From: Staphylococcus lutrae | GTDB taxonomy: Bacteria > Bacillota > Bacilli > Staphylococcales > Staphylococcaceae | Assembly (NCBI RefSeq): GCF_002101335.1 | Contig: NZ_CP020773.1 | Span: 2,170,001-2,234,000, forward strand | Direction: 5' to 3' | DNA length: 64,000 bases | In this document: one piece after another, positions 8,337-15,190 of the stretch | How the letters are laid out: each line of letters begins with the position of its first letter | Numbering within the stretch: position 1 is the first letter of the stretch | Position numbers and translations under genes: made by a program | Notes under the pieces: model-generated | Databases searched by the model: none | The model's input: only the letters and a program-made list of their open reading frames with translations | Told to the model about the DNA's origin: nothing

Positions 8337-8795
8337 CTAATTGTATTTAACGTATTTAAACAATGTTAATTTATCTGATAAAATAGCCTCGCCATATTTT
8401 TTAAAACCTAAAGATTCATAGAAATGATGATTTCTAAAGCTTTTGTGTGGTGTATAGACAGTCCATTTGTTTTTATTAGTCAATTTTTCAAATATCATTT
8501 TCATGACTACTTTTCCAATTCCATTATTTTGTTTATTCGGAGATATAAAAATTTTATATAAATGTTGACTGTCTTTTTTTTCTTTGATTTCAAAAGCACC
8601 TATTATATTTTCGTCTAAAAAAATCGTAAAATGATGATTTGTACATATATCATTCTGTAAATCTTCTAAAGTTTCATAATATGGACTGGTTTCATAATCT
8701 TCATATTCTAAAAAGTCATTTCTAAAGCATTGCTTTTGCATTTCTAAAATAAAATCCGCATTCTTCAAGGTAGTTTTTTTAAAATAAACCGCCAT
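8337..8795 (-). CDS. GNAT-family N-acetyltransferase
   Basis: 152 residues, apparently complete. GNAT features: the strand/loop KIFISPNKQNNGIGKVVMKM (acetyl-CoA binding, GxG/A-like NNGIGK), then VYTPHKSFRNHHFYESLGFK, the usual C-terminal signature. Substrate unknown. It lies three bases beyond the end of the truncated MFS gene on the same strand, so it was probably the last gene of the lanthipeptide operon, perhaps for tailoring or self-protection; that role is inference. It is more AT-rich than its core neighbours. Confidence 0.8.
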   Translation of the reverse strand: MAVYFKKTTLKNADFILEMQKQCFRNDFLEYEDYETSPYYETLEDLQNDICTNHHFTIFLDENIIGAFEIKEKKDSQHLYKIFISPNKQNNGIGKVVMKMIFEKLTNKNKWTVYTPHKSFRNHHFYESLGFKKYGEAILSDKLTLFKYVKYN

Positions 8796-8798
8796 ATC

Positions 8799-9442
8799 TT
8801 ACACACTCTCCATTCTTTTATTATATACTGTGTAAAGCGTCAAAATCGCAAAAATACTTAATAATAGAAGTATTATAAAAATGAAATAAGTATTTAAGTA
8901 TTGGCTAATCATTAGAGTCAATGATGCAATTAAAGAAGAACTCTGCGTGGCCAGTGATCCTAGAGCTGAATAGGATCCTTTTTTATCTAGATTCATAATA
9001 TTCACTTGCGCTACTTGATAAGAGGGGGCGAACACCAATTCTCCTAAAGAAGCGATTATAATAAGTAGTATCATTAAATATATATTATTGGTTGTTAACA
9101 TGAAGAGATACGAAAAGGAGTAAAAACTTGTTCCAATAAGTAAGACATACTTCACTTTATAACGTTCCATATATTTACCTATATATATTGATAATAATAG
9201 AATAATAAAAGTGTTTATTACTTGCAATAAGGCGATAGTTTTTGCAGCATCAAACGAATAATTATCGATTGAATTTATTATATTATTTTTACTTAAATTT
9301 ACACTTACTATATTAGTTAAGTGCCATTCACTACTGAATATAATACCTCCAGCTAATATAAAATATAAAAAACTTTTATCCCTTATTGCATATGAATAAT
9401 TATAAAAAATTTTTTTGATTGATGGGTTTTCCTTGATACAGA
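8799..9442 (-). pseudogene. MFS transporter, C-terminal half only
   Basis: About 214 residues of a major facilitator protein, beginning in the central cytoplasmic loop (CIKENPSIKKIFYNYSYAIR) and covering about six membrane helices, with IGKYMERYKVKYVLLIG between helices. The N-terminal half is gone, replaced by IS3 copy B. The eight residues upstream in the open frame (MSVNESNI) come from the IS end. In class III lanthipeptide clusters such a transporter would export the product or give immunity. Non-functional as it stands. Confidence 0.8.
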
Positions 9443-9524
9443 TGATGTTAGACTCATTAACGGACACAGCGAATTGATAATAAATAGTTTATAATAATAT
9501 TATTAATTTACGGGAGTGTCTGTC

Positions 9525-9812
9525 ATGACTAAGAGAAGATATGAGCATAACTTTAAGATGGAAGCAATAAAACTGGTTGAATCAGGTAGAAAAGCGACTG
9601 AGGTCTCAAGAGACCTTGATATACCGATACAAACACTTACAAAATGGCTGAGTAAGTATCGTGAAGGTGGCGAAGCATCTTTTGTTGGTAGCGGTAAATT
9701 AACACCAGTAAAACAAACAGAAGTCGAATTACAAAAGCGACTTAAGGAACTTGAAGAAGAGAATCGAATATTAAAAAAGGCTATGCACATCTTTGCCAAA
9801 GACCAGAAATAA
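9525..9812 (+). CDS. IS3-family transposase OrfA, copy B
   Basis: 95 residues from ATG 9525, almost identical to 1731-2018, with the same helix-turn-helix, coiled coil and slippery AAAAAAGG before the end of the frame. Confidence 0.92.
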   Translation: MTKRRYEHNFKMEAIKLVESGRKATEVSRDLDIPIQTLTKWLSKYREGGEASFVGSGKLTPVKQTEVELQKRLKELEEENRILKKAMHIFAKDQK

Positions 9813-9850
9813 TTTATGAATTTATATATCAACACCGGCACGAATTTCGT

Positions 9851-10666
9851 GTGACTAAGATGTGCAAAGTATTAGGTGTTTCAAAAAGTGGATATTATGA
9901 TTGGAAAAAACGTCCAGCTTCATCACAACAAAAGAGACGTGATAGATTAAAAAAGGAAATCTATAAAGTTTATATTGGAAGTCAAAAAAGGTACGGCAGT
10001 CCAAAAATCACAAAGGAACTGATGAAAGAAGGAATAAAGGTTTCACAGCGTACAGTAACAAGATTGATGAAAGAAATGGGTATCAGATCAATCACAAAGA
10101 AGAAATATAAAGCAACAACAGATTCTAAACACAATCTACCAATATATCCGAATTTACTAAACCAACGATTTAAAGTTGAAAAGCCAGGTGTGGTATGGGT
10201 ATCAGATATTACCTATATTTATACACGGGAAGGATGGGTGTATCTCGCAACAGTGATGGATTTATTCTCAAGAAGAATAATAGGTTGGTCAATGTCGAAC
10301 AGAATGACGAAAGATTTAGTGATTTCAGCACTAGAAAGAGCATTTACTGCACAGAAGCCAACAGCAGGTTTAATACACCATTCTGATAGAGGAAGTCAAT
10401 ATGCCTCAATAGAATATCAAAATATATTAAGAGAAAACGAAATAATAACGAGTATGAGTCGGAAGGGAAATTGTTATGACAATGCGTGTATAGAGTCATT
10501 TCACAGTATAATAAAGAAAGAACTCATTCATCATTGTAATTTTCAAACGCGTAATGAGGCAATGTTTAGTATTATAGAATATATTGTGACATTCTATAAT
10601 TCCAAAAGAATTCATTCAACACTAAATTATCTAAGTCCACTTGAATTTGAAAAAATGTTTTCATAA
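9851..10666 (+). CDS. IS3-family transposase OrfB, copy B
   Basis: 271 residues with the DDE core as in 2057-2872. Differences from copy A include KVSQRT for KISQRT, NQRFKV for NQQFKV and VMDLF for VMELF. The coding part is undamaged, but the element's right end is displaced by the IS256-family insertion between orfB and the terminal repeat, so transposition would have to carry both. Confidence 0.92.
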   Translation: MTKMCKVLGVSKSGYYDWKKRPASSQQKRRDRLKKEIYKVYIGSQKRYGSPKITKELMKEGIKVSQRTVTRLMKEMGIRSITKKKYKATTDSKHNLPIYPNLLNQRFKVEKPGVVWVSDITYIYTREGWVYLATVMDLFSRRIIGWSMSNRMTKDLVISALERAFTAQKPTAGLIHHSDRGSQYASIEYQNILRENEIITSMSRKGNCYDNACIESFHSIIKKELIHHCNFQTRNEAMFSIIEYIVTFYNSKRIHSTLNYLSPLEFEKMFS

Positions 10667-10752
10667 AATGACCTGTTTAAAAATGAACTTATATGATTTA
10701 ATAAGTTTATTTTTGAATAGGAAACCGAGCAGAGCGAGGTAAAATTATAAAT

Positions 10753-14715: not shown

Positions 14716-14837
14716 TCAAACAACCTCCATTCAAAGATTGAGTTAAGACATGATTATATATTTTAGAAAATAAAAAATGTAGGAAAAACAGCATTTTCAT
14801 TCCGCCATTTTCCTACATTTTATAACCGCCATTTACA

Positions 14838-14985
14838 CTACTATATTTAATAATTCTTGAGCTGTTAAAGGCTCACTAGATATATGTATTTTAAAACCAT
14901 AAGAAGGTAAATTGTTAATTGATCCTACTAACTTATAAATTTTTTTTCGAATCACTCCATTAGTTAAAGAGTTAAAATAAGCCAA
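14838..14985 (-). pseudogene. lanKC: Class III lanthipeptide synthetase LanKC, first fragment (N-terminus)
   Basis: About 49 codons from a TTG at 14985, with AAGGAG at 14996-15001, to the IS21 insertion. The peptide includes GFKIHISSEPLTAQELLNIV, which matches the conserved start of LanKC enzymes (a GWKIHVSATP-like motif). An in-frame TAA just upstream of the TTG rules out an earlier start. It is too short for a standard ORF search. With the fragment at 12256-12640 it gives about 176 residues of an N-terminal lyase domain. Confidence 0.78.
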
Positions 14986-15011
14986 TTTATTATATCTCCT
15001 TTTTATAACAT

Positions 15012-15050
15012 AAATTATAGAGAACGCTAACTAGCGTCCTCTATAATTAT
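15012..15050 (-). promoter_or_regulatory. Intercistronic hairpin between precursor gene and lanKC
   Basis: AATTATAGAGAACGCTA and TAGCGTCCTCTATAATT form a stem of about 16 bp with a tiny loop, lying between the precursor stop and the lanKC ribosome binding site. No T tract follows in the reading direction, so it is more likely a processing or stabilising structure or a leaky attenuator, as is common behind lanthipeptide precursor genes. Confidence 0.6.
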
Positions 15051-15056
15051 GTACTT

Positions 15057-15131
15057 TTATGGTGTAGTACCTGGATAAGATTTTTTTGAATTTTCAGATT
15101 CAAAAGTTTGTAAATTTAAAATCTCTTTCAT
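15057..15131 (-). CDS. lanA: Class III lanthipeptide precursor peptide (short, cysteine-free)
   Basis: 24 residues from ATG 15131, where AGAAG lies nine bases upstream; an in-frame ATG at 15140 would give 27 residues but abuts that site. The leader contains ILNLQTFES, matching the (I/L)LxLQ motif shared by class III leaders such as RamS and LabA, which the LanKC enzyme recognises. The C-terminus ends SKKSYPGTTP: Ser and Thr for dehydration but no Cys, so no ordinary lanthionine could form. It is the first gene on the strand ahead of lanKC. Missed by ORF callers because of its size. The call rests on the leader motif and position. Confidence 0.65.
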   Translation of the reverse strand: MKEILNLQTFESENSKKSYPGTTP

Positions 15132-15153
15132 ATTTAACATCTTCTTTAAAGTT

Positions 15154-15190
15154 AATGTATTTACATATTATCACACAAAAAAAAGGAAAT
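15154..15190 (-). promoter_or_regulatory. Possible promoter of the lanthipeptide operon
   Basis: On the minus strand, TTGATT and GATAAT are separated by 16 bases of T-rich sequence, with TGTGATAAT giving an extended -10. It lies about 25-30 bases ahead of the precursor gene. Modest match. Confidence 0.4.

What the first reader, a model, noticed from the sequence alone, without database searches (positions are those of the whole stretch)
8337..15190. Wreck of a class III lanthipeptide operon hidden under four layers of insertion sequences
Seen: removal of the IS21 element and one CTAC duplication joins two fragments in frame into the N-terminus of a LanKC synthetase (GFKIHIS...SGKFITIYPP...GPYILSDKQY). 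Ahead of it lies a 24-residue peptide gene with the ILNLQ leader motif, and behind it half an MFS transporter and a GNAT gene, all on one strand. The operon order precursor, LanKC, transporter, GNAT can be rebuilt. The kinase and cyclase domains and half the transporter were lost, most likely by an IS3-linked deletion. Class III lanthipeptides are little known in staphylococci as far as I am aware, so intact relatives would be worth finding.
Basis: partly seen in the sequence, partly recalled or inferred. Interest (0 to 1): 0.87.

Follow-up and report, generated by a model that had tools for sequence, protein, structure and literature searches.

The report
Broken class III lanthipeptide gene cluster
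Between two housekeeping genes of a Staphylococcus lie the remains of a gene cluster for making a modified peptide, cut up by mobile elements, and a related species keeps a different remnant of the same enzyme gene at the same spot.

Summary
Between rpoZ and coaBC lie, on the minus strand, two pieces of one class III lanthionine-synthetase (LanKC) gene, split by IS21 with CTAC repeats. Searched apart, they match RamC_N/LanKC at successive profile positions and keep the lyase residues known from ThurKC. An IS3 element ends the second piece; IS256 is nested inside that IS3.

A related genome (G068) carries a different wreck of the same gene at the same site. It overlaps the window by 159 bp (98.7%) and runs on into a kinase domain that the window lacks. 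So the gene was longer and the two copies decayed differently. Other near relatives (G051, G022) have only about 300 bp there.

Less certain: the 24-residue peptide has a class III-like leader and a strong hairpin behind it, but no Cys. Counterparts of the MFS remnant and GNAT gene sit together on a S. equorum plasmid, and GNAT relatives, mostly partial, are on many staphylococcal plasmids; their link to the synthetase is adjacency only. IS257-like ends bracket the block. The genome's second LanKC locus is also hit by IS21. No close intact copy was found (at most about 42% identity).

The parts
7479..7688 (+). rpoZ, left chromosomal flank
   Evidence: TIGR00690 2e-12; conserved in relatives
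8198..8327 (.). degraded end of an IS257-like (IS6 family) element, ending in CTTTGCAACAGAACC
   Evidence: 81% over 129 bp to an IS6 region of a S. aureus plasmid
8337..8795 (-). GNAT acetyltransferase, intact ORF (152 aa)
   Evidence: Pfam Acetyltransf_10 8e-12; 83.6% identical on a S. equorum plasmid
8799..9442 (-). 3' part of an MFS transporter gene (the ORF starts at 9467, inside IS3)
   Evidence: MFS_1 3.1e-11; residues 101-222 86.1% on the same S. equorum plasmid
9443..12255 (+). IS3 family element, interrupted by IS256
   Evidence: NF033516 1.8e-105; intact copy at window 1649-2990
10753..12216 (-). IS256 family element nested inside the IS3, 8-bp repeats TTATAAAT at 10745-10752 and 12217-12224
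   Evidence: NF033543 1.3e-113
12256..12640 (-). LanKC piece A: most of the lyase (RamC_N) domain, cut at its 3' side by IS3
   Evidence: PF25816 1e-27, NF038151 4.9e-32, PDB 8sao 4.3e-15
12641..14837 (-). IS21 family element (istA, istB), 2197 bp, CTAC repeats 12637-12640 and 14838-14841
14838..14985 (-). LanKC piece B: N-terminus with TTG start behind an AAGGAG ribosome site, carrying GFKIHIS
   Evidence: PF25816 0.0012, below cut-off; NF038151 3.4e-4
15013..15048 (-). terminator-like hairpin between the peptide and the synthetase
   Evidence: z -7.56, 0 of 200 shuffles as stable; terminator scan
15057..15131 (-). 24-residue precursor-like peptide with ILNLQ leader motif, no Cys (27 residues from the ATG at 15140)
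   Evidence: NF038154 class III lanthipeptide 18.3 bits, cut-off 22
15293..15307 (.). second IS257-like end, same orientation as the one at 8313
   Evidence: also in G068 (L069 3412)
15824..17029 (+). coaBC, right chromosomal flank
   Evidence: TIGR00521 1e-139

Best explanation
A gene cluster of the class III (RamC/LanKC) type, probably brought in on a plasmid-derived segment bracketed by IS257-like elements, once lay between rpoZ and coaBC in an ancestor shared with G068, or in a donor of both. Its synthetase would have bound the leader of a small peptide, phosphorylated its Ser/Thr residues with the kinase domain and removed the phosphate with the lyase domain. It is now dead. IS21 splits the lyase domain. 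An IS3 element (later hit by IS256) ends the gene, and the kinase and everything up to the middle of an MFS gene are gone. In G068 a different loss took the peptide gene and N-terminus but left part of the lyase and kinase. Shown: identity of the pieces, same site in two genomes, different losses, IS anatomy. Inferred: plasmid origin, MFS as exporter, any product.
For: Separate pieces match LanKC at successive profile positions. Six lyase residues named for ThurKC in PMC10604976 (K94, K108, K117, D152, R163, R191; passages) align with identical residues in piece A (chain number plus 3 gives the paper's numbers), and piece B has a K-x-H motif fitting K65/H67. G068 remnant at the same site: 159 bp 98.7% identical, then a kinase matching the ThurKC structure at 1.2e-17 with its ATP Lys, GD....N loop and D-x-E kept. 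Of the 30 rpoZ loci fetched (from 84 genomes), 27 have coaBC within the flank; the exceptions are the window, G068 and G054. Peptide plus hairpin plus ribosome site. IS257-like ends and plasmid homologues of GNAT/MFS.
Against: No cyclase domain was seen in what is left in either genome. The core peptide has no Cys. MFS and GNAT occur on a plasmid stretch without a listed LanKC. Piece B alone is a weak match. No intact cluster of this kind was found, so the gene order is not confirmed. The 159-bp overlap with G068 (98.7%) is more alike than the right flank (87.7% over 4.4 kb), so later exchange between the species is not excluded.
Confidence: 0.87

Rival explanations
1. Only the peptide and the synthetase are one cluster. 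MFS and GNAT are an unrelated plasmid segment that IS activity joined to it.
For: GNAT hits in 63 plasmid records, 57 Staphylococcus, by a DUF536 gene in the 3 records opened, whose stretches list no LanKC. The LanKC-positive staphylococcal plasmid opened has an ABC transporter.
Against: Same strand and order as an operon. MFS genes do sit beside other LanKC-type genes (L002, L016, L018, L093), though not close relatives of this MFS among the loci compared.
Confidence: 0.45
2. The ancestral enzyme had a short or degenerate cyclase and acted on a Cys-free peptide, giving a dehydrated or otherwise crosslinked peptide, not a lanthionine.
For: Peptide has no Cys, whereas by my reading 22 of 23 relatives with a plausible peptide have one. 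Nearest row in the tree is a 667-aa Carnobacterium protein (98/83) whose LanC match is weak (E 0.0084, below cut-off). Short- or no-cyclase relatives exist in the genus.
Against: The Carnobacterium locus has a peptide-like ORF with a Cys. In ThurKC lyase plus kinase alone made no dehydroamino acids (PMC10604976, passage). The peptide may be mutated, or a second peptide may have been in the lost part.
Confidence: 0.2
3. The 24-residue ORF is a chance ORF and the real precursor was lost.
For: NCBIfam score below cut-off (18.3 versus 22); no Cys; several relatives carry precursor-like ORFs downstream of the synthetase; no minus-strand promoter-like site was called there.
Against: Motif chance 26 of 20000 (198 of 20000 with the looser motif); hairpin and ribosome site in place.
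Confidence: 0.15

Closest known systems
Class III lanthionine synthetases LanKC (ThurKC, PDB 8sao/8sap/8sam; NF038151)
   Same: Lyase domain and its catalytic residues; kinase in the G068 remnant
   Different: Broken; cyclase not seen; at most about 42% identical to any intact one in the listed rows
Carnobacterium inhibens plasmid pWNCR47 protein (667 aa, annotated hypothetical)
   Same: Nearest in the tree (98/83); short N-terminus before the KIHIS motif
   Different: Intact; Rgg regulator and ABC transporter beside it; 41% identical
Other staphylococcal LanKC loci (S. marylandisciuri, S. epidermidis and S. simulans plasmids, G035, G022, G068)
   Same: Same enzyme family, same genus
   Different: 31-38% identical to piece A; S. 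simulans seen only against the G068 remnant (30%). Cys-bearing peptide-like ORFs lie beside those of G041, G035, G022, S. epidermidis and two of the G068 loci (L016, L017); not looked for in S. simulans
Noursin synthetase NorKC (PMC10206099, passages read)
   Same: Class III enzyme and leader motif
   Different: Makes labionin and His crosslinks; no evidence of that here

Membership tests
Class III LanKC synthetase | RamC_N lyase domain | tested here: met
   (pieces apart; piece B below the Pfam cut-off); residues
Class III LanKC synthetase | Ser/Thr kinase domain | tested here: inconclusive
   absent from the window; present in the same-site G068 remnant (Pkinase 1.6e-6, 28.1 bits, cut-off 31.7; 8sao 1.2e-17)
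Class III LanKC synthetase | LanC-like cyclase domain | tested here: inconclusive
   none among the nine block ORFs/pieces scanned or in the G068 remnant, and none at this site in the genome-wide LANC_like search; deleted or never there cannot be told
Class III lanthipeptide cluster | precursor with LxLQ-type leader beside the synthetase | tested here: met
   NCBIfam score below cut-off
Class III lanthipeptide cluster | core with Ser/Thr and Cys for (methyl)lanthionine or labionin | tested here: not met
   no Cys in the ORF, so the product is not filed as a lanthipeptide
Class III lanthipeptide cluster | lanthionine-containing product | not testable with these tools
   needs chemistry; the locus is dead

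The most novel reading that the evidence does not exclude
A branch of LanKC-type enzymes, known here from two same-site wrecks and with a 667-aa Carnobacterium protein as nearest kin, worked on very short Cys-free peptides with a reduced cyclase and so made a non-lanthionine product. The same genome has IS21 insertions in both of its LanKC loci, which would suggest that losing such peptides is tolerated or favoured.
Probability: 0.15. Interest if true: 0.6.

Novelty: new member of a known kind. Interest (0 to 1): 0.4.

Why it matters
It shows that class III synthetase genes reach staphylococcal chromosomes, at one site in two species, and are then lost in different ways. It also points to a diverse set of such loci in the genus (6 of 84 genomes, 11 places, five of them in one genome) that can be studied where intact. 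For itself, the locus is a dead gene cluster.

Tried and rejected
Rejected: IS256 as a separate layer over the gene (it is inside IS3). Rejected as proof of an IS3 deletion: absence of a flanking repeat, because 2 of 3 other copies also lack one; the loss of the kinase rests on the G068 comparison instead. Not found: an intact close relative. The first genome-contig scan with piece A found none. PLSDB plasmids gave 62 records, all under 60% identity, 20 listed. Order search: 11 of 157 genomes, own included. A search with the Carnobacterium protein over 398 genomes of the class at E 1e-60 gave nothing; the tool notes that an empty answer of that kind shows nothing. The RamC_N search of the genus did not flag the G068 remnant at rpoZ-coaBC; the flank search did, and later the piece A search.

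Cys comparison: 32 loci chosen by me (30 of the 80, mostly Bacillota, plus 2 plasmid loci) were scanned; the tally of 23 loci with a plausible peptide, 22 of them with Cys (exception L100), is my own reading of that list after leaving out ORFs that looked spurious. The scan missed the Carnobacterium peptide-like ORF, which lies on the other strand. The tree used 44 rows chosen by me; piece A fills 45% of the columns.

Literature: listings with abstract starts of five searches showed no title on staphylococcal class III lanthipeptides; only passages of PMC10206099, PMC10676384, PMC10604976 and PMC11832629 were seen, so this is not a claim that none exists.

Full report
Setting. The window is G000:C1:2170001-2234000 of a 2.53-Mb single-contig genome. 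The genus is taken to be Staphylococcus: same-genus genome G041 has a 14867-bp contig, the same length as the S. marylandisciuri contig, with the same LanKC of 857 aa.

What is there. On the minus strand, reading from coaBC towards rpoZ (names by TIGR00521 and TIGR00690): a 24-residue peptide ORF (15057-15131), a hairpin (15013-15048; z -7.56, none of 200 shuffles as stable), a LanKC start with a ribosome site (14985), IS21 (12641-14837, CTAC on both sides), the next LanKC stretch (12640-12256), an IS3 element (12255-9443) with IS256 nested in it (TTATAAAT repeats), the 3' part of an MFS gene, a GNAT gene, and an IS257-like remnant. A second IS257-like end lies at 15293-15307, in the same orientation.

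LanKC identity. Piece A: RamC_N E 1e-27, NF038151 4.9e-32 at profile 76-210, solved LanKC 8sao 4.3e-15. Piece B: RamC_N 0.0012, below the Pfam cut-off, NF038151 3.4e-4 at profile 52-78; no match in the PDB. PMC10604976 (passages) lists lyase residues K65, H67, K94, K108, K117, D152, R163, R191 of ThurKC. Chain numbers plus 3 reproduce K94, K108, K117, D152, R163 and R191, and all six are the same residue in piece A. The K-x-H of piece B fits K65/H67 by motif only. The lyase thus kept its known residues; that it was active is inference.

A second wreck at the same site. Of the 30 rpoZ loci fetched from 84 genomes, 27 have coaBC within the flank; the exceptions are the window, G068 and G054. G051 (100% at the rpoZ query) and G022 (98%) have about 300 bp; G054 holds other ORFs there. 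G068 (98%) has, between rpoZ and coaBC, sequence matching window 7868-7966 (98%), then 718 bp with no match in the window, then window 12256-12414 (98.7% over 159 bp), then window 15147 onwards (87.7% over 4.4 kb). Its 312-aa ORF shares 53 residues with piece A at 96% and goes on into a kinase (Pkinase 1.6e-6, 28.1 bits against a cut-off of 31.7; 8sao 1.2e-17 with the ATP Lys, GD....N loop and D-x-E). The window's copy therefore lost the kinase part, and G068 lost the peptide gene and N-terminus. The overlap is more alike than the right flank, so exchange between the species is not excluded.

What is not shown. The MFS fragment and GNAT have 86% and 84% identical counterparts side by side on a S. 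equorum plasmid, where the MFS is also truncated. GNAT hits occur in 63 plasmid records (57 Staphylococcus), only 7 covering 80% or more of it; in the three opened it lies by a DUF536 gene, and in two of these replication genes follow. In 84 genomes of the genus the MFS matched only the window's own (E 1e-30) and the GNAT 4, own included. This favours plasmid origin, fitting the IS257-like ends, but leaves open whether the two genes served the synthetase. The peptide scores 18.3 bits against a cut-off of 22 for class III precursors and has no Cys. The motif alone arises in 26 of 20000 shuffles (198 with a looser motif). The promoter scan found no minus-strand promoter-like site there.

Relatives. 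RamC_N is found in 6 of 84 genomes of the genus, own included, 11 places, 5 of them in G068. The closest intact enzymes in the listed rows are at most about 42% identical. In a 44-row tree piece A pairs with a 667-aa Carnobacterium inhibens plasmid protein (98/83; piece A fills 45% of columns), whose LanC match is weak (E 0.0084). S. epidermidis and S. simulans plasmids carry annotated class III synthetases, so the class is not absent from staphylococci. Two same-genus loci (L020, L021) have lyase plus kinase and no LanC match; L002, L016 and the same-order L093 have enzymes of 695-715 aa with partial or undetected LanC beside MFS genes.

Second locus in the same genome. At G000:C1 about 2091000-2097000 (L002), between pheT and rnhC, a 697-aa LanKC-type ORF lies next to an MFS gene read as two ORFs. 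An IS21 copy of the same length, 99.96% identical, sits in the precursor-like ORF ahead of it, with GTAGT on both sides. Of the IS21 copies in the fetched loci, four have both ends at the full 2197 bp; two of these four sit in the genome's two LanKC loci.

Verdict. The wreck is real and well supported as a broken class III-type synthetase locus. The operon reconstruction beyond peptide plus synthetase is inference, and the product class is open because the core lacks Cys and no cyclase was seen. It is a new, dead member of a known kind.

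Noticed in passing
L002 3350-9004 (G000:C1 about 2091000-2097000): A second LanKC locus in the same genome, between pheT and rnhC, with IS21 in its precursor-like ORF and its MFS gene read as two ORFs.
   Followed up: partly
L016, L093, L087: Short LanKC-type enzymes (667-715 aa) with nearby peptide-like ORFs whose cores look alike (VIFTAGC, IIITNGC, VIVTAYC): possibly single-ring products. 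L087 does not pair with the other two in the tree.
   Followed up: partly
L020 6730-8082 and L021 6374-7717: Lyase-kinase proteins of about 450 aa without a LanC match, next to an S9 peptidase and a 101-aa protein of no Pfam family and an ABC ATPase gene.
   Followed up: partly
L022 4723-8244 (G068): A separate kinase, a stand-alone 149-aa RamC_N protein, a GNAT and an MFS gene in one stretch: a split synthetase-like arrangement.
   Followed up: partly
L017 and L019: Two genomes (G068, G022) carry an 849-aa LanKC with an ABC transporter and peptide-like ORFs ending in SCTSCGASSCNGPDPIH.
   Followed up: partly
window 8045-8198: A stretch repeated elsewhere in the window at about 82% (4111-4268 and 20876-21029), perhaps a small dispersed repeat.
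   Followed up: no
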